Part shown: positions 22,059-57,342 of the stretch, one piece after another | How the letters are laid out: each line of letters begins with the position of its first letter | Numbering within the stretch: position 1 is the first letter of the stretch | Assembly: GCA_017416465.1 (NCBI GenBank) | Contig: JAFQCK010000030.1 | Location: 1-57,342, forward strand | Length of the DNA: 57,342 nucleotides | Reading direction: 5' to 3' | Source: Lachnospiraceae bacterium | GTDB lineage: Bacteria > Bacillota > Clostridia > Lachnospirales > Lachnospiraceae | Translations under genes and position numbers: made by a program | The notes under the pieces: model-generated | Seen by the model: the letters and a program-made list of their open reading frames with translations, nothing else | The model's database searches: none | Told to the model about the DNA's origin: nothing

Positions 22059-22796
22059 ATGAATGAAAAGATTTTAATAGTTGATGATGAAAAAGAGATT
22101 GCTGATTTGATAGAGGTATATCTTAAAAATGATGGTTATACAGTATATAAATTTTATAACGCGATAGAAGTTTTGAAGTTTATTGAAAAAGAAGAAGTGG
22201 ATTTGGCAATTTTAGATGTTATGCTGCCTGATATAGATGGTTTTAAGCTTTGTCAGAAAATCAGGGAAAAATATTTTTATCCGGTTATAATGCTTACTGC
22301 AAAGGTTCACGATAATGATAAGATTATGGGACTTACACTTGGTGCAGATGATTATATAACTAAACCATTTAATCCGCTAGAGGTTGTTGCGAGAGTAAAA
22401 ACTCAGCTTAGAAGATATATGAGATATAATCAGGCAGGGCACAATGTCGGTAATTCAGATGATGGTAAAGAGTATAAGAAGAATATTGATGAAAATATTA
22501 ATGAATATGATATAAATGGCTTGATTATTAATAAAGATAATCATAAATGTACAATGTATGGTGAAGAAATTATGTTGACACCTATTGAGTTTTCGATTTT
22601 ATGGTATCTGTGTGAACATAGAGGAAAGGTTATTCCGTCAGAAGAGTTATTTGAAAATGTATGGGGAGAGAAATTTATTGATAACAACAATACAGTTATG
22701 GCACATATAGGAAGACTTCGTGAGAAATTAAAAGAGCCTGCAAAGAAACCTAAGTTTATAAAAACGGTGTGGGGAGTGGGATATACAATTGAATAA
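22059..22796 (+). CDS. VanR-like OmpR-family response regulator
   Basis: 245 residues. Receiver domain with KILIVDDEKEIADLIEVYLK, phospho-acceptor aspartate in LAILDVMLPD (about residue 52), and the lysine in DDYITKPF. The winged helix ends FIKTVWGVGYTIE. The wording closely follows VanR (IVDDE, EIADL, LGADDYITKPF, KTVWGVGY). Its cognate VanS-like kinase is 24190-25398, but a DUF4143 ATPase gene lies between them. No vanH, vanA/B or vanX homologue is present, so the target is probably another envelope function. Confidence 0.9.
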   Translation: MNEKILIVDDEKEIADLIEVYLKNDGYTVYKFYNAIEVLKFIEKEEVDLAILDVMLPDIDGFKLCQKIREKYFYPVIMLTAKVHDNDKIMGLTLGADDYITKPFNPLEVVARVKTQLRRYMRYNQAGHNVGNSDDGKEYKKNIDENINEYDINGLIINKDNHKCTMYGEEIMLTPIEFSILWYLCEHRGKVIPSEELFENVWGEKFIDNNNTVMAHIGRLREKLKEPAKKPKFIKTVWGVGYTIE

Positions 22797-44440: not shown

Positions 44441-44528
44441 TACTACACTTTATACTACACTTTATACCGCACTTTTATTTTTATAATTTTCTATGTGTGT
44501 GGACTTTGATTAAGAAATATAGCATAAT
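44441..44528 (+). promoter_or_regulatory. Surface-locus promoter signature, copy 1
   Basis: Three tandem 12-mers: TACTACACTTTA (44441), TACTACACTTTA (44453) and TACCGCACTTTT (44465). After 22 bases comes GTGGACTTTG (44499), and then AAATATAGCATAAT ending at 44528. The same order is found at 48728, 52729 and 56560. No TTGACA-like -35 is present, so an activator bound to the 12-mers seems likely (inference). Confidence 0.6.
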
Positions 44529-44579
44529 ATTTGTATTAGTGTTTTATGAATTAATTAAAGAACGAGGAGGAATGAACTT

Positions 44580-47264
44580 ATGAAACACAAAAGAGTTGTA
44601 GCAATAATATTAGCGTTGATAATGATGGCAGGAATATTACCACAGATATCAATAACAGCATTAGCAGAAAATGAAACAGTAGTATGTACTAATTTTTCAG
44701 AGTTTAAAGAAGCTATGGAAGATAAAGAAGTTTTAAATGTGAGATTAGTTGGTAATATTAATGAGGTGTTGCCAGTTGATAGTGGGGAATGCGGATTATG
44801 GTCGGCTATAATGCTATCTGGGGAGAAAATACTTACAATAGAAGGGAATGTTACTTTTACAGCACCAGTAATAGATGTGGAAGATTATTCTAAATATAAG
44901 AATTACTATTCACTTATTCATGTTATGAGTGGTGGAAAATTAACAATTAATGGAACGGGTGTTCTTACATTCAGAAGTTCATTAAGTAATGGTCAAAATG
45001 CTGTAATTTATAATGATGGATATACAACAATTGATGGAGGTACATTAGTTGGTGCTTATAATGTTGCTGTATATGGAATGGCAATTTGGCAGAATAATGG
45101 AGTACTTACAATTAATGATGGCGGATTTAAAGGTTATAATGCGTGTGATCATAATAGAGCAAATAAAGCCTTATACATATATGGTGGTGTAACAAGAATA
45201 TATGGTGGAACATTTATGGCATATAACGAATACGATGGTACAGGTAATTGTTATGGTTTAGATATAAATGGAAATAATGATGTTTTAATATATGGTGGAA
45301 GATTTTTTGGAATAAATTTGCCTAAAAATCGTTGCATTGGTGAGTTTATGGATTATATGTCTTATGCATGGTATGATGACATCAATAAAGTTACAGGTGA
45401 AGAAAATGAAGAATTAAAAAACGGTTATACAGATTTTTATTCAAAAACATTGGTTGAAGAGATTTCACTTACCGTTGATTCAGTTAAAGAAGGTCAAAAA
45501 GCATCAGGAGTAGTATCAACAAATACTTCGGGATATACAATAAAAAGTGTTGATTGGTATGATAGAACAGAAGATACATATATGGAATCTACAGATACCT
45601 TTGTTGAAGGGCATGAATATTCAGTTAATATTTGGTTGAATATAAGTGCTAATCATATGTTTGCAATAAATAGTTATGAAGGTATAACAACAGTAACAGG
45701 TATAGTAAATGGAGAAGAAGTAACAGTTAATAATGCGTATGGACAAGATCCGAAGAGTGTAATTAAAGTCGTGTATGATTGTGGTGTATGTAATGACACT
45801 GTAATTGAAGAAATAATGGTTTCAAATGTTGAAGAACCAAAAGCAGGAGATACACCAGATTATTTGGCAAGTACAATAGGAACAGGATATAAAATAGCAG
45901 ATTCTAACTATGAAAATTATCATATAAATGGTATTACATGGTATGATTCGACAGAAGAAGAATACGGTTCATTAATGTACAAAGACAGTGTGTTCGAGCC
46001 AGGTCATAAATATACAGTTGTAATTAAAGTTGTAACAGAATCGGGTTATGAGTTTTATACAAATAAGGAGGGGGAGGTTTTAGCAACTTGCTCAGTTAAC
46101 AATAATCTGGCAAAATTCGGTGAAACATTCTCTGGTTATCAATGGGAACAAAAAGTTGAATACACATTTGTGTGTAATAAAGGAGTAATTACAGAAGCAG
46201 AAATAACTAATTTAGATGTACCTGTAGATGGGGATAAGCAGGATATGTTTATTACAGCAAAAGAATCAGATTATTATATGATAGATAGCAGTTATGGTTA
46301 TAATGGAGTATATTGGTATGATTCATATGGTAATACTTTAAATAAAGATGATAAGTTTGTAGAGGGAGAAATATATAGAGTTGAAATAAAATTAGTTCCG
46401 GTAAAAATAGATGGAGTGCCTGTGTGTACGTTTGACTCATCATTAAAGGTTATGGCTAATGTTACACAAGCAAGTGAAGTGTATGCAATGAGTGATATAG
46501 CATATGTGTATTTTGACTTTACATGTTTGTCAAAAGAGGAAAAAGTTGATAAGACTGGTTGGGTTAAGGAAGACGATAATTGGTACTATTATAATTCTAA
46601 TGGGTTAGTAGCTAAGGGATGGAAAAATATTAATAGTAAATATTATTATTTTGATTCAAAAGGTGTAATGCAATATTCGAAATGGATATCAGGAAAGTAT
46701 TATGTAAAATCTAATGGAGTTATGGCAGTATCAGAGTTTGTAGATGGCGGAAGGTATTATGTAGATGAAAATGGTCTATGGGTAAAAGAAACCAAATGGA
46801 TGCAGATAGATGATAGTTGGTATTTTATTAAATCTGGTTCGGTACAAATGTCAAAATGGTTAAAAATAGGTGGGAAATATTACTATTTTAATGGAAATGG
46901 AATAATGCAGTCTTCAAAATGGATAGGAAGCTATTATGTAAAATCTAATGGAGTTATGGCAGTATCAGAATTTGTAGATGGCGGAAAGTACTATGTAGAT
47001 GAAAATGGTCTATGGGTAAAAGAAACCAAATGGATGCAGCTAGGTGAGAACTGGTATTATATTAAATTAGGTACAGTGCAGATATCAAAGTGGGTTAAAA
47101 TTAATAATAAATATTATTATTTTGATGAAAATGGAGTGATGCAGTCATCAAAATGGATAGGAAATTATTATGTAAAAGCAAATGGGGTAATGGCAGTATC
47201 AGAGTGGGTAGATAATGGGAAATATTATGTAGGCGAAGATGGATTGTGGGTTAAAAATCCATAG
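44580..47264 (+). CDS. Secreted wall-binding repeat protein B with a beta-helix-like domain
   Basis: 894 residues. Signal peptide MKHKRVVAIILALIMMAGIL to about ALA. Residues 35-290 show a right-handed beta-helix-like pattern (GKLTINGTGVLTF, YTTIDGGTLVGAYN, VLTINDGGFKGYN, VTRIYGGTFMAYN). Three beta modules follow; DCGVCNDTVIEEIMV and HINGITWYDSTEEE closely match the gene at 52854. CW_binding repeats run from about 46556 to the end WVKNP. AGGAGG lies 9 bases before ATG 44580. Likely an adhesin or glycan-binding surface protein; no catalytic residues recognised. Confidence 0.83.
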   Translation: MKHKRVVAIILALIMMAGILPQISITALAENETVVCTNFSEFKEAMEDKEVLNVRLVGNINEVLPVDSGECGLWSAIMLSGEKILTIEGNVTFTAPVIDVEDYSKYKNYYSLIHVMSGGKLTINGTGVLTFRSSLSNGQNAVIYNDGYTTIDGGTLVGAYNVAVYGMAIWQNNGVLTINDGGFKGYNACDHNRANKALYIYGGVTRIYGGTFMAYNEYDGTGNCYGLDINGNNDVLIYGGRFFGINLPKNRCIGEFMDYMSYAWYDDINKVTGEENEELKNGYTDFYSKTLVEEISLTVDSVKEGQKASGVVSTNTSGYTIKSVDWYDRTEDTYMESTDTFVEGHEYSVNIWLNISANHMFAINSYEGITTVTGIVNGEEVTVNNAYGQDPKSVIKVVYDCGVCNDTVIEEIMVSNVEEPKAGDTPDYLASTIGTGYKIADSNYENYHINGITWYDSTEEEYGSLMYKDSVFEPGHKYTVVIKVVTESGYEFYTNKEGEVLATCSVNNNLAKFGETFSGYQWEQKVEYTFVCNKGVITEAEITNLDVPVDGDKQDMFITAKESDYYMIDSSYGYNGVYWYDSYGNTLNKDDKFVEGEIYRVEIKLVPVKIDGVPVCTFDSSLKVMANVTQASEVYAMSDIAYVYFDFTCLSKEEKVDKTGWVKEDDNWYYYNSNGLVAKGWKNINSKYYYFDSKGVMQYSKWISGKYYVKSNGVMAVSEFVDGGRYYVDENGLWVKETKWMQIDDSWYFIKSGSVQMSKWLKIGGKYYYFNGNGIMQSSKWIGSYYVKSNGVMAVSEFVDGGKYYVDENGLWVKETKWMQLGENWYYIKLGTVQISKWVKINNKYYYFDENGVMQSSKWIGNYYVKANGVMAVSEWVDNGKYYVGEDGLWVKNP

Positions 47265-47328
47265 AAGAAACAATAAAAATATAGGATAAAAGATTAAGGG
47301 GCTGTCGGGAAATAGATAGTTGATAACA

Positions 47329-47370
47329 GCGGAGGCTGTGACAAGTTAAGTCACAGCCTCCGCAAAATTT
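47329..47370. terminator. Strong bidirectional terminator between convergent genes
   Basis: GCGGAGGCTGTGAC (47329-47342) and GTCACAGCCTCCGC (47350-47363) form a perfect GC-rich 14-bp stem with a 7-base loop, followed by AAAATTTTT. Confidence 0.8.
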
Positions 47371-47429
47371 TTATGTAAAAAGAAAAAAGTGGCAACCGAT
47401 AACACCTTAATTATTGCTGTAATAAATAA

Positions 47430-48593
47430 TTAATTTTTTTCTTTTGATGACAGTTCAATTGTTGAAGCAAAAGCTAATAACTGTTTTCTAGAGGTTACTC
47501 CTAGTTTACTGTATATATTTTTATTGTGATATTTAAGAGTATTTTCAGTTATGTTTAAACAATCGATAATATCTTTTGTTCTCTTACCAGATATATATAA
47601 ATCATATATTTCGCGTTCTTTAGGTGTAAGAAATTTTAATTGTGATTCAAAAAAATTCAATTTCAGCAAATCATCATCCATTTCATTAATAGAGTTTGAA
47701 GAAGAGATGTCAATTGATTTTATATCGGGATATTTATTCTGATTATTTAAAGTATTTTCATTGTTATTATCATTTTCTATGTTTGATATAGGTGTTAGAG
47801 TAGTTTCAATTTGTTCATTATTAATTGTTAGATTGGCTTCTTTAGAATGATTTTCTTCAATAATCATATGAAGTTCTATCAGGAAAAGTTCAGTAATAAT
47901 ATAAGATACTGACAAAAATTCAAAATTTATACTTACTATTTGTTCTAAAAACCAAACACATATATTTACAAACACAGCAATTAAAAGAATTGAAGAATGA
48001 ATCTTTGATTCAATTATTTTTTTGTTTGAAGCATACATAATAACAAAAATCATTAGAGAAAAGTATAACAACAAATGAAAAAGGTATATCTTATGCCAAG
48101 AACCATATTCTTTGACTAAGACAGACATTCCGTTTATAATTTTGAAATCTACATCTTTATAATAAATATTAAGATATCCGGGACTTGCAGCGATTAAGAA
48201 TACAATGATACTTACACTTAACAATATTCCGGAAAAAGCTTTTTTACACTTGATTTTACAAGTGTTCATTATAATCATTAACATAGAAAGTGGAAGAAAC
48301 ACTGAACCTAAATATGAAATTCGATTGGCAAGTAATGCTTCTTCTAAATTTTTTGAAATTGCAAGTGAAAGATAACCCAGATTAACTATAAAAACAGAAG
48401 AAAAAAGAATATAAAACCATAATTCTTTGTTTTGTATTAAACAACAATATCCAATTAATAAAAGGAAAGAGAAAATTGCAGTTAAAATATATATTACAGA
48501 CATATTGGTTGATTTTGCGCCAATTTCACTACAACTTGTAAGGCACAAAATAATAAATAATATAAGACTTGATATGATATATGTTTTTTTCAT
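47430..48593 (-). CDS. Membrane-bound LuxR-family transcriptional regulator
   Basis: 387 residues from ATG 48593, with GAAAGGA upstream; the frame opens further upstream at 48671 but without a site. The N-terminal 245 residues are hydrophobic, with about seven or eight helices (IISSLILFIILCLTSC, YILTAIFSFLLLIGY, HLLLYFSLMIFVIMYA). A polar Asn-rich linker follows. The C-terminus is a LuxR helix-turn-helix: LTPKEREIYDLYISGKRTKD, then CLNITENTLKYHNKNIYSKL. The shape suggests direct membrane-to-DNA signalling. It is divergent from the DUF6935-like operon and lies among four units sharing the 12-mer signature, so it is the best candidate for their regulator (inference). Confidence 0.85.
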   Translation of the reverse strand: MKKTYIISSLILFIILCLTSCSEIGAKSTNMSVIYILTAIFSFLLLIGYCCLIQNKELWFYILFSSVFIVNLGYLSLAISKNLEEALLANRISYLGSVFLPLSMLMIIMNTCKIKCKKAFSGILLSVSIIVFLIAASPGYLNIYYKDVDFKIINGMSVLVKEYGSWHKIYLFHLLLYFSLMIFVIMYASNKKIIESKIHSSILLIAVFVNICVWFLEQIVSINFEFLSVSYIITELFLIELHMIIEENHSKEANLTINNEQIETTLTPISNIENDNNNENTLNNQNKYPDIKSIDISSSNSINEMDDDLLKLNFFESQLKFLTPKEREIYDLYISGKRTKDIIDCLNITENTLKYHNKNIYSKLGVTSRKQLLAFASTIELSSKEKN

Positions 48594-48676
48594 AATTATC
48601 CTTTCGTAAAAGAGGCAATTATTATATAAATATGCCATTTTGATTTTAAGCCAATTAAAAGGCATGCACATAGATG

Positions 48677-48705
48677 TTTATACCATAAAAATGGGTTTTA
48701 GTCAA
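48677..48705 (-). promoter_or_regulatory. Extended -10 promoter of the LuxR-type regulator gene
   Basis: On the minus strand: TTGACT (48705-48700), a 17-base spacer ending in TGG, TATAAA (48682-48677). A good match to sigma-A with an extended -10, so the regulator itself is probably made constantly. Confidence 0.6.
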
Positions 48706-48727
48706 TTTTATAGGTATGAATAATGAA

Positions 48728-48815
48728 TCCTACACTATTTGCCACACTTTTATTTTAATAAAAGAGAATATATAGTATTTTGGGTGGGGATTTTTATTGT
48801 TAAATATTAGAAAAT
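48728..48815 (+). promoter_or_regulatory. Surface-locus promoter signature, copy 2
   Basis: Tandem 12-mers TCCTACACTATT (48728) and TGCCACACTTTT (48740), then 32 bases, GTGGGGATTT (48784), and TTAAATATTAGAAAAT ending at 48815. The gap is about one helical turn longer than in the other copies. It lies in the intergenic region shared with the regulator gene. Confidence 0.55.
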
Positions 48816-48867
48816 TACCGTGAGAAGTTATGTTTATTAATAATAGAAAGTGAAGGAGTGATAGAGC

Positions 48868-49386
48868 ATGGATATGTCTAATCAGACAAACAACAGTGAA
48901 ATGTTTAGTTTTAATGAGGTTCCAAAGTCAGTTTTAGAGCTTAAAGAGTTACCGGAGGCTAGTCTTGATTCACCTTTTAAAACAACAGCACTTGTAATGA
49001 TTGTACTATGTAATTTTGAAAAGGATGAAAATGCAACTTTTGAAATGTTGGATTTTCTAAAAGGACCGGATTCAGTGTCACCTTTTGAAAAACAGTTTAT
49101 TACAGAAAGACTAAAAGGAAAATACTACAAAACATTTTCATTTTTTAATGGAGCAACACCTGATAACGGTTATGTTCCGGATAAGCCATACTCGATAGTG
49201 GTAACTTCAAATCCATATTCATTTACAAATGAAAATTGGGCGACGATGTTTGTGAAAAGTGCGGGAGCTGATTCTTTGAGGCAGATTAAACTTAGAAAGA
49301 AACCGTCAACAGGTCAATGGTTTCTAAATGATATCCAGTGCCTTTCTGATATTAGAATACCTACACAAGAAGATCCGTGGGCATAA
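48868..49386 (+). CDS. DUF6935-like cytoplasmic protein
   Basis: 172 residues, no signal peptide or helix. The pattern FSFNEVPKSVLELKELPEAS, CNFEKDENATFEMLDFLKG, FFNGATPDNGY and LSDIRIPTQEDPWA matches what I remember of DUF6935 proteins. Function unknown. AAGGAG precedes ATG 48868. The next gene, a secreted wall-binding protein, starts 65 bases later without a terminator between, so they are probably one operon under the signature promoter at 48728-48815. Confidence 0.65.
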   Translation: MDMSNQTNNSEMFSFNEVPKSVLELKELPEASLDSPFKTTALVMIVLCNFEKDENATFEMLDFLKGPDSVSPFEKQFITERLKGKYYKTFSFFNGATPDNGYVPDKPYSIVVTSNPYSFTNENWATMFVKSAGADSLRQIKLRKKPSTGQWFLNDIQCLSDIRIPTQEDPWA

Positions 49387-49451
49387 AATTATAACAATAT
49401 AAGTTGGTAATAAGATAAAAAATATTATAAAAAAAGAAAGAAGGAGAAAAG

Positions 49452-52400
49452 ATGACAAAGGGATTAAAGAAAAGAATTTTTAGCATTATTTTAACAATTG
49501 TAATGATGGTAGGTTTACTTCCAACAAACTTAGTTGTCAGTTTTGCAAGTGAAACTGAGAGTGAAGAGATTGTTATAGAAGTAACTAATTGGGACGAATT
49601 TAAGAATGCCTTTCATTATTCGGAGTATAAAGGGGATAGTTTTACTATAAAGCTAATGAATGATTTATGTGCTGATACTGCAGAGGCAGGCGAAAAAAAG
49701 ACAGCAATATTATATACATGGATATATGGAAGTTTTGTTACACTTGATTTTAATGGGTATACGCTTTCATTCAATGAGGAGTGTTCAGCTAATGATTTAG
49801 CTTATAAAATATCTGACTTTATTACTATAAAAATGCGTCCTTTGAATTATACTGTTGGAAGTACCCTTAGAATTATTGATTCTAAGGGAGGCGGAGGAAT
49901 AAGTATGAATTCTGTACGTGCTTATGATTCACAGCTTTCGGCGTTACATATACTTGGGGATGATTATTTTGAATTAAATGGTATATTAAAGGAAACTGTA
50001 GGTCCAATCAATAAAGTAATAATTGATGGCGGGGAATATACATTAAATGCAAAAATTCATAGAGTTGGTAATGGAACTCTTGATGGTAAAACATATTATC
50101 GAGGAACTGTAATTGCTGATTGGGTAAAAGCAGAAATTAATGATGGAGTATTTAAAGCAGAATCAGATGGTGTATATACTTCTGATGGTGATATGTGTGC
50201 AAGAGAACTTTCTGCTTTTGCAACTTGTTGTTCAACAAGTGCCAGACCTAATGATGTTAAATATGGTAAGGTTATAATTAATGGTGGATTATTTATGTCA
50301 GACGGATATTCTATACATCATTTTGATAATGCCTCTAAAATAGATGAGACATATTATATGAATTTTCCTAAAATCAAAGCAGGTGCATTTATTGGAAAGA
50401 TGGGATTTTTAGGAAAAACATATACATATTCTGAGGGATATGATTATTGGGTTGCTCAGCCGGCTTCAAATGTTATTTCTTCGGAAAGTTTTGTAAGAGG
50501 AATTAATAAAAATCAAGAATATTTTAATGATATAGTAGGGATGACTCTTAAAGATTTGCATGAACTAAAAAGCTGTTATGTTTTTAATGAAAAGGTATTT
50601 GATTTAAAGACAACACCAATTATTGATGAAGATACAGTGTTAGAAAGATGTAGTGAACAATCAGAAGAATTTTCAATTACTTATAGTATTCCAATGTGGG
50701 TAGAAAAATTGGATACTGAATATTATACAGAAATTAGTGTTATAGGTGAAAACAAAGAGTTGAATGAAAAAACTGATACTCTAAATGTTTCATATAAAGA
50801 TTTTGTTGGTGAAGTAAAAGTCATCTTGGATTTTTATTATATTATTGGTAAAGAACCAATATCATTTAGTAAAGAATATGATGTCTTAGTATCAGAAATA
50901 CAAAAAGGTGCTGAAATTACTGTTCAACCTAAATCAAGTCAGGTTTTACCAGGAGAATTTGCCAGTGCCTATGTGGTAGCTGATTATGCTAAGTCATATC
51001 AGTGGTATTATATATATGAAGGGTATAAGTTCGAAATAACAGAAGACTTTTTAAGTATGTTTGATGGTGTAATTATGGAAGGATATGATACACCTTGCTT
51101 AAGCGTTAAGTTTTCTGAAGATTATGTTGGAGAAGAAATTTTTTATTGTGTTATTACTGGATTAGATGGTTCTAAAGTAAATACGAATAGGATTACTTTA
51201 ACATTCGGAGATAAGCCAACTGTAAATTCTTTTGCTGGTGGAGAGTATAATAATACTACTGATGCAGTATTTACAATCTGGGGATATTATATGGAAAATG
51301 TTACTTGGAATGTAATGTATAAAACAAGTGGAAATATGACTATATATACACTTGATGAATTTGCTAAACTAGTAGGTGTAGACTATACAGTAAAACATCA
51401 AAAGTTTGCTAATCATTTATATCGTGCTATGGTTACATTTAAAAATGTACCTGAAAGTGTTAATAAAAATTATTCAGTAGGATATTCTCTTAAAAACAAT
51501 CTTGGAACAGTTGATTTTATACCGGATAATACGCTTTTATTTGAGTTCATTGAAGTTAAGCCAGAGATAACACAGGTACTCGAAAGTCAGAGTTGTTTTT
51601 CGGGAGAAAACGTTACGTATTCTTTTGTAGCAAATAATATGGTAGCCTCTGAATGGAGATTTGAAAAAGAGGATGAAGAAGGTGTTATGGTAGTATATAC
51701 AATTGATGAAATGAAAGAATTGTATGACGATATGACATTTGAAGAGACTTTTAGCGATGGAGAAGCATCTCTTACAATAACTAATGTGCAGTGTGAATTA
51801 AATGATTATATTTTATATGGATATGCAATAGGAGAAAATGGTATAGCTAGTGCAGGTAAAGTATTTATGAATGTAGGGGATATTGAAGTATTTGATGAGA
51901 TTAAATCTGGTTGGGATAATAAGGATGGAAACTGGTATTTTTATGATTCTGATGGTAATAAAGTAACAGGATGGAAAAAAATTAATAAATATTATTACTA
52001 TTTTGATGCAAATGGAATTATGCAATCGTCGAAATGGATATCAGGAAAGTATTATGTTAAAGAAAATGGCCAGATGGCTGTATCTGAGTTTGTAGATGGT
52101 GGAAAATATTATGTAGATGAAAATGGTTTGTGGGTAAAAGAAACAAAATGGATGCAGGTAGGCGATAATTGGTATTTCTTAAATGCTGGAACAGTGCAGA
52201 TATCAAAATGGGCTAAAATAGGTGGAAAATATTATTACTTTGATGCAAATGGAGTAATGCAGTCGTCAAAATGGATTGGTAATTACTATGTAAAAGCAAA
52301 TGGTGTAATGGCTGTATCTGAATTCGTAGATGGTGGAAAGTATTATGTAAATGAAAATGGCTTATGGGTAAAAGAAACAAAATGGATGCAGATAGATGGT

Positions 52401-52670
52401 AATTGGTACTATATTTTATCAGGAACAGTTCAAGTATCAAAGTGGACTAAAATAGGAAGTAAATATTATTATTTTGATGCAAATGGAGTAATGCAGTCAT
52501 CAAAATGGATTGGTAATTACTATGTAAAAGCAGATGGCTCAATGGCAGTATCACAGTGGGTAGAAGGAAAATATTATGTGAAAGCTGATGGAACAATGGC
52601 AAAATCTGAGTGGGTAGATAATGGTAAATATTATGTAGGTGAAGATGGAGTATGGGTACCAAATCCATAA
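49452..52670 (+). CDS. Secreted wall-binding repeat protein C with beta-helix-like and Ig-like domains
   Basis: 1072 residues. Signal peptide KRIFSIILTIVMMVGLLPTN. A beta-helix-like segment (residues 40-300: KVIIDGGEYTLNAK, KAEINDGVFKAESDG, KVIINGGLFMSDGY) is followed by Ig-like modules (ITVQPKSSQVLPGEFASAYV, FYCVITGLDGSKVNTN; QSCFSGENVTYSFVA). CW_binding repeats run from about 51906 to WVPNP. AAGGAG lies 6 bases before ATG. Second gene of the operon with the DUF6935-like protein. Likely a surface binding protein; no enzyme motif seen. Confidence 0.82.
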   Translation: MTKGLKKRIFSIILTIVMMVGLLPTNLVVSFASETESEEIVIEVTNWDEFKNAFHYSEYKGDSFTIKLMNDLCADTAEAGEKKTAILYTWIYGSFVTLDFNGYTLSFNEECSANDLAYKISDFITIKMRPLNYTVGSTLRIIDSKGGGGISMNSVRAYDSQLSALHILGDDYFELNGILKETVGPINKVIIDGGEYTLNAKIHRVGNGTLDGKTYYRGTVIADWVKAEINDGVFKAESDGVYTSDGDMCARELSAFATCCSTSARPNDVKYGKVIINGGLFMSDGYSIHHFDNASKIDETYYMNFPKIKAGAFIGKMGFLGKTYTYSEGYDYWVAQPASNVISSESFVRGINKNQEYFNDIVGMTLKDLHELKSCYVFNEKVFDLKTTPIIDEDTVLERCSEQSEEFSITYSIPMWVEKLDTEYYTEISVIGENKELNEKTDTLNVSYKDFVGEVKVILDFYYIIGKEPISFSKEYDVLVSEIQKGAEITVQPKSSQVLPGEFASAYVVADYAKSYQWYYIYEGYKFEITEDFLSMFDGVIMEGYDTPCLSVKFSEDYVGEEIFYCVITGLDGSKVNTNRITLTFGDKPTVNSFAGGEYNNTTDAVFTIWGYYMENVTWNVMYKTSGNMTIYTLDEFAKLVGVDYTVKHQKFANHLYRAMVTFKNVPESVNKNYSVGYSLKNNLGTVDFIPDNTLLFEFIEVKPEITQVLESQSCFSGENVTYSFVANNMVASEWRFEKEDEEGVMVVYTIDEMKELYDDMTFEETFSDGEASLTITNVQCELNDYILYGYAIGENGIASAGKVFMNVGDIEVFDEIKSGWDNKDGNWYFYDSDGNKVTGWKKINKYYYYFDANGIMQSSKWISGKYYVKENGQMAVSEFVDGGKYYVDENGLWVKETKWMQVGDNWYFLNAGTVQISKWAKIGGKYYYFDANGVMQSSKWIGNYYVKANGVMAVSEFVDGGKYYVNENGLWVKETKWMQIDGNWYYILSGTVQVSKWTKIGSKYYYFDANGVMQSSKWIGNYYVKADGSMAVSQWVEGKYYVKADGTMAKSEWVDNGKYYVGEDGVWVPNP

Positions 52671-52696
52671 CATAAATTTAAGCATAATTAAGCGAG

Positions 52697-52728
52697 AACG
52701 CTGGTCTAAAACAGACCGGCGTTTTTTG
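52697..52728 (+). terminator. Rho-independent terminator, duplicated at 56528
   Basis: AACGCTGGTCT (52697-52707) pairs with AGACCGGCGTT (52713-52723), one G-U, then T run. The signature 12-mers begin at its last T. Confidence 0.8.
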
Positions 52729-52805
52729 TACTACCCTTTATCCTACACTATTGTATTAAAAAATCTTATTAGGGTGGGGGATTTGTTAGGGAAATATAGT
52801 AAAAT
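52729..52805 (+). promoter_or_regulatory. Surface-locus promoter signature, copy 3
   Basis: 12-mers TACTACCCTTTA (52729) and TCCTACACTATT (52741), 21 bases, GTGGGGGATTT (52774), and AAATATAGTAAAAT ending at 52805. Confidence 0.6.
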
Positions 52806-52853
52806 GACTCTATTGAAATTTAGAGATTCTAGCAATAAAAAAGGAGGAAAATT

Positions 52854-55800
52854 ATGAAGAAGAAAAGAAAAATGCGATTACTTAGTATCATACTTTGTTT
52901 GATGATGCTGGTATCTATTTGTCCTACTAATGTTTATGCGTGGGATGAAGAAATTGATTGTGAGTTCTGTGGGGCATTTTGTGGAGATTCCTACATATGC
53001 GATGGTGGAGCTCATTGTAGCGAGGAAAGTGGTAGAGATTGTTATCAGGAAAATCATTGTCAACACTGCGGTGAATGTAAATCAAATGCATCCGAGTGGT
53101 GTGATGACTGCCATATGTGTGTAGAGTGCGCAATGCAAAATGAATGTCATTGCGTTGATTGTGGAGTGTGTGGTGTTGATGAGCAGTTATGTGAGGAATG
53201 TGGAAGATGTTACTCGAACTGTGGAGGGGAATGTAGTGAAGGGAAGAATCATTTGTGCTTTGAATGTCATCTTGATTACGGTTATGCATGTGAAAAATGT
53301 GGATTATGCTATTTAGAAGATGAGTCATTAAAATGTCAGATATGCTCAACTTGTCATGAGTGTTCAGATGAGTGGTGTGATGCTTGTAATATGTGTGTGG
53401 AATGTGCAGCGGATAATGGATGTCATTGTGTTTCTTGTGGCGCATGTCAGGTAGACAATGAGCTTTGCGCAGAGTGTTGGCAATGTTATGAATGTGCAGG
53501 TGAATGTAGTGAGGGTACAGACCATGTTTGTTTGGAATGTCACCTTAGTTTAGATTATGCTTGTCCGGGATGTGGATTATGTTATGTGGAAGATGACACT
53601 TTAAGGTGTCAAATCTGTGGATATTGTGCTGCATGTGAGACTGAGTGGTGTGCTGATTGTCATATGGGTATTGAATGTGCAATGGATAATGGTTGTCATT
53701 GTATCGAGTGTGGCGTGTGTCAGGTAGAAAGTAAACTTTGTGAAAACTGTTGGAGATGTTATGACTGTGGTGGCACATGTAGTGAAGGTGATGACCACAA
53801 TTGTTTAGAATGTCACATAGAAAACGGAGAAGCTTGCCCGACATGTGAATCTTGCTTTATAGATAAGTACGGCACAAGTTGTGAGAGATGTGGCATATGT
53901 TTTGATTGTTGTACAGACTGGTGCGACATGTGTAATTTGTGTTACGAATGTGGTGTGGAAGATGGACTTCACTGTCAAAGTTGTGCAGAATGTTTGTTAA
54001 TGGCAGATGGTTATTGTACAGGATGTTTTATTTGTTCGGATTGTTCAAGTGGAATATGTGAGTCTTGCGAAGCATGTGCAGACTGTGTTGAGATATGTCC
54101 TAACTGTGAAGAACATTGTAACGACTGTGCCGAAGTTTGCGGAGAATGTGGTTCGTGCGAATATTGTACAGACCTAAGTTACTGTGACATGTGTAATGAG
54201 TATTATTGTTATGATTGTCGATCTACTTGTAGTGGTTGCGGTTCATGCGACTCCTGTGTAAATGTGTGTACAAGTTGTGGAGATTATTGTTCGGGATGTG
54301 CATCAGTTTGTACTGAGTGTGGTGAGTGTGAATTTTGTGTAAGTCTTTGCAAAACATGTGAGGAATATTGTAGCAATTGTTATGAGCAATGTCCAAATTG
54401 TGAAACAACAATTGCACAAAAGCTTGATTTAGTTGAACTTACTGTTACAGTACCTAAGGAAGGTAACAAACCATCATATACAATAGGTTGTGCAAGTGAG
54501 GCCTACTACGCAATTGGTGGAAGCTCTAACTACACGGATTACAGACAGTGGATGGAATCTGTTGATGGTGTTAACTACACTGTTATGAGTACTAGTGACA
54601 CATTTAAGGCTGGTTATTATTATAAGTTCTATGTGGATATAAGTGTTGCAAGTGGTTATACTTTCTTGTTATATGATAATGGAATCAACCTCATGCCTAA
54701 GGTTTCAGCAACTGTTAATGGAAATTATGCCAAGGTACATAAAATGTATGATCAGGTTCCATCTAAGTATATTACTGTGGAATATGACTTTGGTATTTGC
54801 AATGATAGTGTGATTGAAAGAATCGAAGTAATAGATGTGGATAAACCGATTTCAGGTGCTACACCGGATTATTCTGCAAATGTTTTTGGAACAGGATATC
54901 ATGTAGATAAGAGTAATTATGACAACTATCATTTTAATGGAATTACATGGTATGATACAACAGAAGAAGAAAATACTTTTGTTATGTATAAAGACAGCAA
55001 ATTTATTGCAGGTCATAAATATACTGCAATTATTAAGGTTGCGACAGATCAGGATTATGAGTTTTATACAGATAAGAATGGTGAAGTTTTAGCTACATGT
55101 TATGTTAATGGGTATCCTGCTGAATTTGGTGTAACTTCATCAGGATATCAATGGAATCAGAAGATTGAATATACATTTACATGTGAAAAAGCAAAAATAT
55201 CAGAAGTTACAATTGAAAACCTTGAATCTCCAATAGCCGGTAATAATCCTGATTTTACAGCTAATACAGATGATAGCTTTTTGTATATTTTAGATTCAAG
55301 CTATGGAATTAATGGAATTTACTGGTATGATGCAGAAGATAATTTGTTATTAGAAGATGATAAATTTGTTGAGGGTGAAAAATATAGGGTTGAAATAAAA
55401 CTTATACCTAATAAGAATGATGGTATTGATGCTTCTGAATTTATGGAAGAAATAGGAGCTAATGTTGGTGGAATAGAAGCAGTTGCTGCATATGCAATGA
55501 GTAATAGAGCATATGTATACTTTGACTTTATTTGTGAGCCAAATAAGGAGATTGTTAATAAAAAAGGTTGGGTTAAAGAAGATAATAATTGGTATTATTA
55601 TGATGCTAATGGTGTAATGCAGACATCTAAATGGATTGGCAGTTATTATGTAAAAGCTGATGGTGTAATGGCAGTATCTGAGTTCGTAGACGGTGGAAAG
55701 TATTACGTGGATGAAAACGGATTGTGGGTAAAAGCAACAAAATGGTTGCAGATAGGTGACAATTGGTATTTCCTAAATGCCGGAACTGTACAGATATCAA

Positions 55801-56501
55801 AGTGGGCTAAAATAGGTGGAAAATACTATTATTTTGATGGAGCAGGAGTGATGCAATCATCAAAATGGATATTAGGAAAATATTATGTAAAATCTAATGG
55901 AGTAATGGCAACATCAGAATTAGTAGATGGCGGAAAGTACTATGTAGATGAAAACGGATTATGGGTAAAAGAAACTAAATGGTTACAGATAGGTGACAAT
56001 TGGTATTTCTTAAATGCCGGAACAGTGCAGATGTCAAAATGGACTAAAATAAGTGGAAAATACTATTACTTTGATGGAGCAGGAATAATGCAGACATCAA
56101 AATGGATAGGCAATTACTATGTGAAATCTAATGGTATAATGGCAGTATCAGAATTTGTAGATGGTGGAAAATACTATGTAGATGAAAATGGATTATGGGT
56201 AAAAGAAACTAAATGGATGAAGATAGGTAACAACTGGTATTACATCAACAAAGGAACAGTACAGATATCAAAGTGGTCTAAAATAGCTGGAAAGTACTAT
56301 TACTTTGATGAGACAGGAATAATGCAGACATCAAAATGGATAGGTAATTACTATGTAAAGGCAGATGGTTCTATGGCAGTATCGCAATGGGTAGAAGGAA
56401 AATACTATGTGAAAGCAGATGGAACAATGGTAAAATCAGAGTGGGTAGATAATGGAAGATATTATGTAGGTGAAGATGGAGTATGGGTACCAAATCCATA
56501 A
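52854..56501 (+). CDS. Secreted cysteine-rich wall-binding protein D
   Basis: 1215 residues. Signal peptide (MRLLSIILCLMMLVSICPTN, cut near VYA). Residues about 36-520 contain about 120 cysteines (hand count), mostly as CxxC, in four imperfect units of 91-92 residues (EWCDDCHMCVEC, HCVDCGVC, GECSEG, FECHLDYGYAC) and then a denser tail (CSGCGSCDSC, CTECGECEFC). Three beta modules follow, shared with protein B (HFNGITWYDTTEEE), then CW_binding repeats from about 55567 ending WVPNP. Possible roles: metal or thiol binding, or a disulfide-braced adhesin; none is proven. GGAGG precedes ATG. Confidence 0.85.
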   Translation: MKKKRKMRLLSIILCLMMLVSICPTNVYAWDEEIDCEFCGAFCGDSYICDGGAHCSEESGRDCYQENHCQHCGECKSNASEWCDDCHMCVECAMQNECHCVDCGVCGVDEQLCEECGRCYSNCGGECSEGKNHLCFECHLDYGYACEKCGLCYLEDESLKCQICSTCHECSDEWCDACNMCVECAADNGCHCVSCGACQVDNELCAECWQCYECAGECSEGTDHVCLECHLSLDYACPGCGLCYVEDDTLRCQICGYCAACETEWCADCHMGIECAMDNGCHCIECGVCQVESKLCENCWRCYDCGGTCSEGDDHNCLECHIENGEACPTCESCFIDKYGTSCERCGICFDCCTDWCDMCNLCYECGVEDGLHCQSCAECLLMADGYCTGCFICSDCSSGICESCEACADCVEICPNCEEHCNDCAEVCGECGSCEYCTDLSYCDMCNEYYCYDCRSTCSGCGSCDSCVNVCTSCGDYCSGCASVCTECGECEFCVSLCKTCEEYCSNCYEQCPNCETTIAQKLDLVELTVTVPKEGNKPSYTIGCASEAYYAIGGSSNYTDYRQWMESVDGVNYTVMSTSDTFKAGYYYKFYVDISVASGYTFLLYDNGINLMPKVSATVNGNYAKVHKMYDQVPSKYITVEYDFGICNDSVIERIEVIDVDKPISGATPDYSANVFGTGYHVDKSNYDNYHFNGITWYDTTEEENTFVMYKDSKFIAGHKYTAIIKVATDQDYEFYTDKNGEVLATCYVNGYPAEFGVTSSGYQWNQKIEYTFTCEKAKISEVTIENLESPIAGNNPDFTANTDDSFLYILDSSYGINGIYWYDAEDNLLLEDDKFVEGEKYRVEIKLIPNKNDGIDASEFMEEIGANVGGIEAVAAYAMSNRAYVYFDFICEPNKEIVNKKGWVKEDNNWYYYDANGVMQTSKWIGSYYVKADGVMAVSEFVDGGKYYVDENGLWVKATKWLQIGDNWYFLNAGTVQISKWAKIGGKYYYFDGAGVMQSSKWILGKYYVKSNGVMATSELVDGGKYYVDENGLWVKETKWLQIGDNWYFLNAGTVQMSKWTKISGKYYYFDGAGIMQTSKWIGNYYVKSNGIMAVSEFVDGGKYYVDENGLWVKETKWMKIGNNWYYINKGTVQISKWSKIAGKYYYFDETGIMQTSKWIGNYYVKADGSMAVSQWVEGKYYVKADGTMVKSEWVDNGRYYVGEDGVWVPNP
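52959..54405 (+). repeat. Coding repeats of the cysteine-rich region
   Basis: The repeating codons for [ED]WC.xC start at 53094, 53370, 53643 and 53916, periods of 276, 273 and 273 bases. The DNA is heavy in TGT/TGC codons. A long reverse-strand frame here arises only from this composition. Confidence 0.8.
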
Positions 56502-56527
56502 CATAAATTTAAGCATAATTAAGTGAG

Positions 56528-56558
56528 AACGCTGGTCTAAAACAGACCGGCGTTTTTT
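56528..56558 (+). terminator. Rho-independent terminator, copy of 52697
   Basis: AACGCTGGTCT (56528-56538) with AGACCGGCGTT (56544-56554) and a T tail, same as after protein C. Confidence 0.8.
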
Positions 56559-56559
56559 G

Positions 56560-56636
56560 TACTACCCTTTATCCTACCCTATTGTATTAAAAAATCTTAT
56601 TAGGGTGGGGGATTTAATCGGGAAATATAGTAAAAT
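56560..56636 (+). promoter_or_regulatory. Surface-locus promoter signature, copy 4
   Basis: 12-mers TACTACCCTTTA (56560) and TCCTACCCTATT (56572), then GTGGGGGATTT and AAATATAGTAAAAT ending at 56636. Nearly the same sequence as copy 3. Confidence 0.6.
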
Positions 56637-56692: not shown

Positions 56693-57342
56693 ATGAAGAA
56701 TCAGAAACAAATTTTGCAAGTATTGTTAGGCTTGATTATTGCAGTGGGAGTTTTGGTGTTTGGTAATCAAGTAGCATTTGCGACCGTGGATGCTTCACTT
56801 GTTTACATGAATGATGATTGGGGTAAAGAAGAAGGAAATATTATCAAATCTGTAACATATGAATCAAATGGAGATGGAACATATAAGGCTAATGTATCAG
56901 TAGATTTTTCTTGTGTTGATGAACAGAAACTTGCTGATAATTATGGCGGAGTTGGATATTGTTGGTATGATAATGACAATAAAATCCATTATGGAGGAAT
57001 TGGAGTCTCTCAAGGGTTAACTGACTTTAGGTATACAATTTATTCAAGTTTGGAACCTGGTAAGACATGGAAATTGAAAGTTTATCTTGCTTATGATTAT
57101 TATGGCGATGAAGAATGGAGAGAAGTAGATTTTCAGATGTTGGAACTAACAGTTCCTACACCAAATCCTCTTATTTATGTGAATAATGACTGGGGTAAAG
57201 AAGAGGGAAATATTATCAAATCCGTAACATATGAATCAAATGGAGATGGAACATATAAGGCTAATGTATCAGTAGATTTTTCTTGTGTTGATGAACAGAA
57301 ACTTGCTGATAATTATGGCGGAGTTGGATATTGTTGGTATGA
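56693..57342 (+). CDS. Secreted tandem-repeat protein, 3' end outside the window
   Basis: ATG 56693 with AGGAGG 9 bases upstream; open to the window end (216 codons seen). Signal peptide with LLGLIIAVGVLVFGN and cleavage near AFA. The mature part starts a repeat of 124 residues: WGKEEGNIIKSVTYESNGDG, then FSCVDEQKLADNYGG, and again from about residue 165. No domain name recognised; it looks like a beta-sandwich repeat. Given the shared promoter and neighbours it may also end in wall-binding repeats, which cannot be seen here. Confidence 0.75.
   Translation, partial: MKNQKQILQVLLGLIIAVGVLVFGNQVAFATVDASLVYMNDDWGKEEGNIIKSVTYESNGDGTYKANVSVDFSCVDEQKLADNYGGVGYCWYDNDNKIHYGGIGVSQGLTDFRYTIYSSLEPGKTWKLKVYLAYDYYGDEEWREVDFQMLELTVPTPNPLIYVNNDWGKEEGNIIKSVTYESNGDGTYKANVSVDFSCVDEQKLADNYGGVGYCWY
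56816..57342 (+). repeat. 372-bp tandem repeat at the window end
   Basis: Sequence from 56816 recurs from 57188 with only a few changes over the 155 visible bases. The period of 372 equals 124 codons. Confidence 0.8.

What the first reader, a model, noticed from the sequence alone, without database searches (positions are those of the whole stretch)
44441..56636. Shared activator-type promoter signature on four surface-protein units around a membrane LuxR regulator
Four upstream regions (44441, 48728, 52729, 56560) carry two or three tandem 12-mers of the form TnCyACmCTnTT, then 21-32 bases, a GTGG box, and a -10-like hexamer 29-31 bases further. None has a -35 box. Copies 1 and 2 are otherwise diverged, so the conserved parts are likely functional. 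A 12-bp period puts sites on nearly the same DNA face. The LuxR-type membrane regulator at 47430-48593 lies in the middle and shares an intergenic region with copy 2. This looks like a self-contained sensor-regulon for wall-bound proteins. Regulator-site pairing is inference.
Basis: partly seen in the sequence, partly recalled or inferred. Interest (0 to 1): 0.78.

Follow-up and report, generated by a model that had tools for sequence, protein, structure and literature searches.

The report
Membrane LuxR switch for surface proteins
A gene regulator predicted to sit in the cell membrane, with a receptor-like seven-helix part and a DNA-binding part, is paired with a matching set of repeated DNA sites in front of nearby cell-surface protein genes, and the same pairing recurs in dozens of gut bacteria, so it looks like an undescribed one-protein switch for remodelling the cell surface.

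Summary
The four promoter elements are real. In the 3.7-Mb genome, hits to the tandem 12-mer pair with 0-1 mismatch occur only at these four places. In 80 loci with 39-53% identical regulators, the window-derived pattern hits 41 times in 24 kb upstream of the regulators against 7 times in 1.26 Mb elsewhere. A family-level element lies beside the regulator in 74 of 80, against 12 of 1,014 random placements.

Two corrections. Across the family the GTGG box is an inverted 12-mer (TCCCACACTTTT / AAAGTGTGGGGACA). It overlaps a -35-like GGGACA; the best -10 hexamer starts 31-32 nt after the inverted site starts in 49 of 74 loci. The geometry is that of a class II activator.

I read it as a new variant of membrane-bound LuxR one-component systems. 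Binding, activation and ligand are untested.

The parts
47430..48593 (-). Membrane LuxR-type regulator, 387 aa: lipobox-like N-terminus (LTSC, Cys21), seven-helix domain with a beta-hairpin between helices four and five, C-terminal LuxR/GerE HTH
   Evidence: Pfam GerE 1.9e-13 and HisKA_7TM 4.6e-12 (on the longer ORF); conserved C21 and HTH; AF2 model pLDDT 86.3. Start at 48593 chosen by eye from the Shine-Dalgarno-like AAAGGA and from relatives; the longest ORF starts at 48671
44441..44476 (+). Element 1: three tandem 12-mers (44441, 44453, 44465)
44493..44504 (-). Element 1: inverted half-site (ATGTGTGTGGAC), overlapping a -35-like TGGACT
   Evidence: assigned by the family alignment; not significant in the window alone
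44523..44528 (+). Element 1: -10-like CATAAT
   Evidence: offset +30 from inverted site; family offset +31/+32
48728..48751 (+). Element 2: two tandem 12-mers, in the intergenic region shared with the regulator
48778..48789 (-). Element 2: inverted half-site (TTTTGGGTGGGG)
   Evidence: family alignment; not significant alone
48810..48815 (+). Element 2: weak -10-like GAAAAT
   Evidence: offset +32; only 4 of 6 bases match TATAAT
52729..52752 (+). Element 3: two tandem 12-mers
52768..52779 (-). Element 3: inverted half-site (ATTAGGGTGGGG)
   Evidence: family alignment; not significant alone
52800..52805 (+). Element 3: -10-like TAAAAT
   Evidence: offset +32
56560..56583 (+). Element 4: two tandem 12-mers (near-duplicate of element 3)
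56599..56610 (-). Element 4: inverted half-site (ATTAGGGTGGGG)
   Evidence: family alignment; not significant alone
56631..56636 (+). Element 4: -10-like TAAAAT
   Evidence: offset +32
44580..47264 (+). Target 1: secreted-looking choline-binding-repeat protein, 894 aa, three copies of a shared domain without a Pfam family
48868..49386 (+). Target 2a: DUF6935 protein, 172 aa, no signal peptide seen
   Evidence: Pfam 3.7e-53
49452..52670 (+). Target 2b: secreted-looking choline-binding-repeat protein, 1072 aa, probably same operon as 2a
   Evidence: operon inferred from the 65-base gap
52854..56501 (+). Target 3: secreted-looking Cys-rich choline-binding-repeat protein, 1215 aa, three copies of the shared domain
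56693..57342 (+). Target 4: secreted-looking protein, cut by the contig end
   Evidence: no Pfam match

Best explanation
The locus is a self-contained one-component switch. A membrane LuxR-type regulator senses something at the outer face through a lipid-anchored (predicted) seven-helix domain. Through its cytoplasmic LuxR/GerE HTH it binds an operator array of two or three tandem TCCCACACTTTT-type 12-mers, often a third forward site about 30 bp further on, and an inverted copy overlapping a weak -35 (GGGACA). It activates transcription of neighbouring surface-protein genes in class II fashion, and probably controls its own gene when divergent. Shown by comparison: the array, its geometry, its co-occurrence with this regulator and with this HTH type. 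Inferred: DNA binding, activation rather than repression, lipidation, ligand sensing.
For: Window-derived pattern (fixed, before the loci were fetched): 41 hits in 24.0 kb upstream of 80 regulators (40 of 80 loci, all on the divergent strand) against 7 in 1.263 Mb elsewhere. Family-level element within about 420 bp upstream or 350 bp downstream of the regulator in 74 of 80 loci against 12 of 1,014 random placements; after clustering 79 regulators at 60% identity, 41 of 46 clusters. In 68 it lies upstream, in 6 downstream in front of the next gene. In the family scan all three other genomes with the same HTH have it (one of them, L138, is new; the other two look like the genomes of L104 and L050), while four homologs with the same 7TM but another HTH have no array. 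Best -10 hexamer at +31/+32 from the inverted site in 49 of 74. Forward-to-inverted distances cluster at 17-19, 27-29, 39-41, 48-50 and 60-62. 15 of the 16 HTH positions 350-365 carry the same residue in 75 to 79 of 80 rows. In the genomes of 40 of the 80 loci a strict pair pattern occurs 0-3 times per genome.
Against: No binding or expression data. Six of 80 loci fall below the threshold: L045, L046, L070 and L080 score 20-21, L052 and L094 clearly less. The strict pair pattern misses 15 of 40 regulator genomes (25 hit, 30 places, backward control 5) and, in the family scan, misses all 9 genomes with a regulator match, the window's included. The backward control of the window pattern was not empty upstream (7 hits). 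A looser cluster scan of whole loci gave 121 clusters against 97 for the backward control, so secondary sites seen there are leads only. In the window the inverted sites are not significant alone, and element 2 has a poor -10. The 12-mer weights were set after seeing the loci. The longer forward-to-inverted distances follow partly from the shorter ones, so the periodicity is not independent evidence. Pair-less sites elsewhere in the own genome were not searched.
Confidence: 0.8

Rival explanations
1. The regulator binds the array but represses: bound to the inverted site over the -35 it keeps surface genes (and its own gene) off until a signal releases it.
For: The inverted site overlaps the -35 hexamer, and in many divergent loci the distal pair starts about 25-55 bp from the regulator start codon, so it may also cover the regulator promoter.
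Against: The -35 is a poor GGGACA and the tandem pair lies upstream, where activators sit; this fits activation better. No expression data either way.
Confidence: 0.13
2. The array is bound by another factor (a response regulator or alternative sigma factor) and merely lies near the LuxR gene.
For: Other regulators are in the window (OmpR-type response regulator 22059-22796, kinases); no binding data.
Against: The array stays with this regulator in 74 of 80 loci with differing neighbours, upstream or downstream of it, and no array was seen beside four 7TM homologs with another HTH. Of 397 family genomes 2 have the strict pair, neither with the regulator (backward control 4 genomes); but that pattern also missed the 9 with a regulator match, so this last point is weak.
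Confidence: 0.05
3. The repeated promoters are only copies made by duplication of surface genes together with their upstream DNA, with no common regulator.
For: Elements 3 and 4 are near-identical duplicates, including an upstream terminator-like hairpin seen by eye.
Against: Elements 1 and 2 are diverged outside the conserved blocks, and the same array occurs in front of unrelated proteins in other genomes.
Confidence: 0.02

Closest known systems
10-12-TM LuxR regulators of Eggerthella lenta (DadR, HcdR, CadR), PMC9734109 (12 passages read)
   Same: N-terminal multi-helix membrane domain fused to a C-terminal LuxR HTH; genes near the regulator activated, shown there with deletions
   Different: 10-12 helices against 7 here; no lipobox mentioned in the passages seen; targets there are metabolic enzymes; no operator described in the passages seen ('palindrom' 0 occurrences); other taxon (Coriobacteriia)
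HisKA_7TM sensor domain of histidine kinases (PF16927), PMC5847659 and PMC6944256 (passages read)
   Same: Same Pfam 7TM domain (4.6e-12)
   Different: Here the output is a LuxR HTH, not a kinase; the own genome also has three longer proteins that match essentially over the 7TM part
ComA of Bacillus subtilis, PMC4797271 (abstract and passages read)
   Same: Helix-turn-helix activator using both inverted and direct repeats of one recognition element at its promoters, with type I and type II activation
   Different: ComA is not a membrane protein (recalled); its elements are hexamers TTGCGG with 4- or 5-nt spacers, and one extra DNA turn abolished binding there, whereas spacing here takes several values about a turn apart
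MalT (PMC4381067, one passage read)
   Same: Activator binding several boxes cooperatively at its promoters; the NCBIfam MalT model matches 31 of 36 members
   Different: MalT is a STAND ATPase; in the window protein the match is HTH only, 23.1 bits against a cut-off of 537

Membership tests
LuxR/GerE (NarL-type) HTH regulators | C-terminal GerE HTH domain | tested here: met
   PF00196 50.2 bits against cut-off 23.5; best solved match by sequence is GerE 1fse, 6.1e-09
LuxR/GerE (NarL-type) HTH regulators | Binds DNA through the HTH | not testable with these tools
   needs footprinting; indirect support from co-occurrence
HisKA_7TM sensor proteins | Matches PF16927 over its cut-off | tested here: met
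   46.7 bits against cut-off 28.6
HisKA_7TM histidine kinases | Kinase output domain | tested here: not met
   Only HisKA_7TM and GerE found in the 413-aa ORF
10-12-TM LuxR family of Coriobacteriia | 10-12 N-terminal TM helices | tested here: not met
   Hydropathy gives 8 segments, the first being the lipobox segment; AF2 gives a short N-terminal helix plus seven longer helices before the linker
Bacterial lipoproteins | Signal peptide with lipobox ending in Cys | tested here: met
   By regex only: broad form 66 of 79 relatives, stricter form 57 of 80; window LTSC. Lipidation itself not testable. A subgroup (e.g. L069, L072, L075) lacks it
GPCR-like seven-helix fold | Seven-helix bundle superposing on GPCRs over the whole domain | tested here: met
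GPCR superfamily (homology) | Detectable sequence homology | tested here: inconclusive
   6-14% identity in the structural alignments; the profile search of solved structures gave 32 sequences, matched over the HTH region only
Class II activator promoters | Proximal operator overlapping the -35 with the -10 at fixed spacing | tested here: met
   Inverted site runs into GGGACA; -10 at +31/+32 in 49 of 74. Positions only; activation not tested

The most novel reading that the evidence does not exclude
A bacterial receptor with a GPCR-like fold, lipid-anchored outside, that is itself the transcription factor, and that moves between gut bacteria as a portable switch (receptor plus multi-operator promoter) to which very different surface proteins are attached. 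The near-invariant hairpin and helix tops, on the outside in the inferred topology, would mean one common external signal for many species.
Probability: 0.35. Interest if true: 0.85.

Novelty: new variant of a known kind. Interest (0 to 1): 0.72.

Why it matters
One membrane protein appears to carry both the receptor and the DNA-binding part, and its operator can be read from the genome, so targets can be listed in genomes that have it. That makes the signal testable: a reporter with this promoter plus the regulator is a ready-made sensor. It would also give a concrete bacterial case of a GPCR-like fold used for direct gene control, and a handle on how gut bacteria (all 80 relatives are MAG records; the titles that name an animal name ruminants) choose which surface proteins to display.

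Tried and rejected
Rejected: GTGG box as a separate element or as the -35 of an unusual sigma factor; the family alignment shows it is the inverted 12-mer plus GGGACA at normal sigma-70 distance from TATAAT. Rejected: generic signature of choline-binding proteins; Choline_bind_2 repeats occur on 10 other contigs but the tandem pair only here, and no cluster was found at window CBP genes 37130 and 40762. Considered from memory only and dropped: MerR-, VirR- or LytTR-like sites.

Dropped rows: the tool kept 80 of 154 relatives. L066 was left out of the regulator alignment because its start was mis-called, so 79 relatives plus the window. Targets were called for 73 of 74 element loci. One search was given 40 of the 80 loci, and A1 holds 36 of the 81 regulators.

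Full report
What was checked. The window is a whole contig (G000:C168) of a 3.7-Mb genome in 172 contigs. The four upstream regions hold nine 12-mer units in tandem sets of 3, 2, 2 and 2. The tandem pair is far beyond chance in the window (8 hits with up to 3 mismatches, 5 of them in the elements; 0.79 expected, 0 of 100 shuffles reach 8). In the whole genome the 5 hits with 0 or 1 mismatch all lie in the four elements; the other 7 hits (2 mismatches) are like the backward control of 8. Pair-less sites elsewhere in the genome were not searched. Elements 3 and 4 are duplicates, so three independent copies exist.

The element travels with the regulator. The pair pattern fixed on the window before any relative was fetched gave 41 hits (up to 2 mismatches) in 24.0 kb upstream of the 80 regulators, all on the divergent strand, in 40 of 80 loci, against 7 in 1.263 Mb elsewhere; the backward control gave 7 and 1. 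With family-level half-site weights, set after seeing the loci, an element (pair or inverted pair, 22 of 24 or better) lies beside the regulator in 74 of 80 loci: 68 upstream, 6 downstream in front of the next gene. Random placements in the same loci give 12 of 1,014. At 60% clustering of 79 regulators it is 41 of 46 clusters. Of the 6 misses, L045, L046, L070 and L080 score 20-21; L052 and L094 score 19 or less. The genome of L052 has an array elsewhere, before a gene that by eye resembles the zinc-binding targets of L043 and L103. In the genomes of 40 of the 80 loci a strict pair pattern hits 25, 0-3 times each, 30 places in all, against 5 for the backward control. In 397 family genomes it hits 2, neither with the regulator (backward control 4 genomes), and it misses all 9 with a regulator match, the window's included, whose sites deviate from that pattern. 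A looser scan for clusters of half-sites over whole loci gave 121 against 97 for its backward control, so secondary sites found there are leads only.

Specificity control. The family scan found 9 of 397 genomes with a match at E up to 1e-40. Besides the window, three have a lipobox and the same HTH (L135, L137, L138), and all three carry the element; L135 and L137 look like the genomes of L104 and L050, so only L138 is new. Four others (L139-L142) share the 7TM domain but have a different HTH (for example KKHTSSIFTKLG), no lipobox seen, and no array in about 1.5 kb on each side, only one isolated half-site each in L139 and L141; the match in the remaining genome (L143) covers only the 7TM part. 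So, on four negatives, the element follows the DNA-binding domain, not the sensor domain.

Architecture of the element. Aligned over loci, the common order is [TCCCACACTTTT][TCCCACACTTTT], about 18 nt, [TCCCACACTTTT], about 6-7 nt, [AAAGTGTGGGGACA], about 17 nt, TATAAT, with shorter forms (pair plus inverted site, three tandem sites plus inverted site, or one forward plus inverted site) in other loci. Among 74 loci, forward sites are 12 (47 pairs), 30-31 (34) and 42-43 (32) bp apart; forward-to-inverted distances cluster at 17-19 (40), 27-29 (7), 39-41 (8), 48-50 (21) and 60-62 (20). The periodicity over all pairs is strongest near 10.5 bp, over nearest pairs near 10; the longer distances follow partly from the shorter ones, so this is not independent evidence. 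After the inverted 12-mer comes a further ACA (75, 55 and 58%), making GGGACA, a degenerate -35. The best -10 hexamer starts 31 or 32 nt after the inverted site begins in 49 of 74 (67 of 74 have a hexamer of 5 of 6 or better). Elements 3 and 4 of the window have TAAAAT at +32, element 1 CATAAT at +30, element 2 only GAAAAT at +32. In the window alone the inverted sites are not significant.

Targets. In 73 loci the first gene after the element is secreted-like by a simple hydropathy rule in 50; in seven more (L047, L056-L059, L073, L087) the longer frame starts with a lipoprotein-type signal that my start choice cut off. Pfam in 77 targets (4 of the window): dockerin 10, SLH 7, DUF4428 6, double zinc ribbon 6, SprB 5, LRR_5 4, Flg_new 4, fn3 4, choline-binding 3, all three in the window. 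A domain of about 117 aa with consensus ISSVEITGVDAPVAG...NGVTWYD...FVAGHEY (consensus) occurs in 30 of 73 targets and in window proteins 44580 and 52854, also in 37130, which has no element; 49 of 2,036 ORFs carry it. Five of six natives have no Pfam match at E up to 1 and the sixth only two sub-cut-off ones. It is predicted as a beta domain (pLDDT 93.9) with no clear solved relative. Not all targets are secreted: DUF4428, zinc-ribbon, DUF6935 and, in L050, a response regulator also occur. The payload varies while regulator and promoter stay.

Distribution. In the window's genus 6 of 8 other genomes have some match, but the best is 33% identical and covers only the 7TM part, so I see no ortholog. 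In the family 4 of 397, the window included, have a regulator with this HTH. Patchy distribution suggests horizontal transfer or repeated loss; I did not test this with trees.

How it probably works (inference). The N-terminus is lipidated and outside, seven helices cross the membrane, and the HTH is inside, which fits an odd helix count. A signal at the conserved outer face changes pairing or position of the HTHs, which bind the array cooperatively and recruit RNA polymerase at the weak -35. In many divergent loci the distal pair lies 25-55 bp from the regulator start, so autoregulation is likely.

Known relatives. Membrane LuxR activators are known from Eggerthella lenta with 10-12 helices (PMC9734109, passages). 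ComA shows that a helix-turn-helix activator can use both direct and inverted repeats and activate in type I and II modes (PMC4797271, abstract and passages). HisKA_7TM is known as a kinase sensor (PMC5847659, PMC6944256, passages). I found no description of a 7TM-LuxR regulator or of this operator in the searches made (one search listed 10 of 17); the library lacks most subscription papers.

Noticed in passing
window 45804-46169, 54426-55529; loci such as L034, L076, L036: A repeated beta-rich domain of about 117 aa (consensus ...PVAGETPDY...NGVTWYD...FVAGHEY...) with no Pfam match in 5 of 6 tested copies, in 49 of 2,036 ORFs of these loci.
   Followed up: partly
L139, L140, L141, L142: Homologs with the same 7TM domain but a different LuxR HTH and no 12-mer array; possibly parallel switches with another operator.
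   Followed up: no
L050 11149-11209: The array stands before a gene that looks like a NarL-type response regulator instead of a surface protein, suggesting a cascade.
   Followed up: no
G191 (L146-L155): A genome of the window's family has 24 copies of a pair-like sequence, several in inverted pairs about 200 bp apart, perhaps a small mobile repeat unrelated to the regulator.
   Followed up: no
L135 / L144 (G173:C42): A second, shorter regulator copy (open frame 213 aa) lies about 1 kb from the full one.
   Followed up: no
window 48868-49386; L039, L040, L041, L044, L052, L068: DUF6935-type proteins recur near this regulator (Pfam match for the window and one other of the 77 targets; the rest judged by eye from their ends).
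   Followed up: partly
window 52854-56501; L064, L078, L082, L084, L091: Very Cys-rich secreted-looking targets recur as payloads, judged by eye from their N-termini.
   Followed up: no
window 522-3395: A hybrid histidine kinase with a sub-cut-off HisKA_7TM match in the same window.
   Followed up: no
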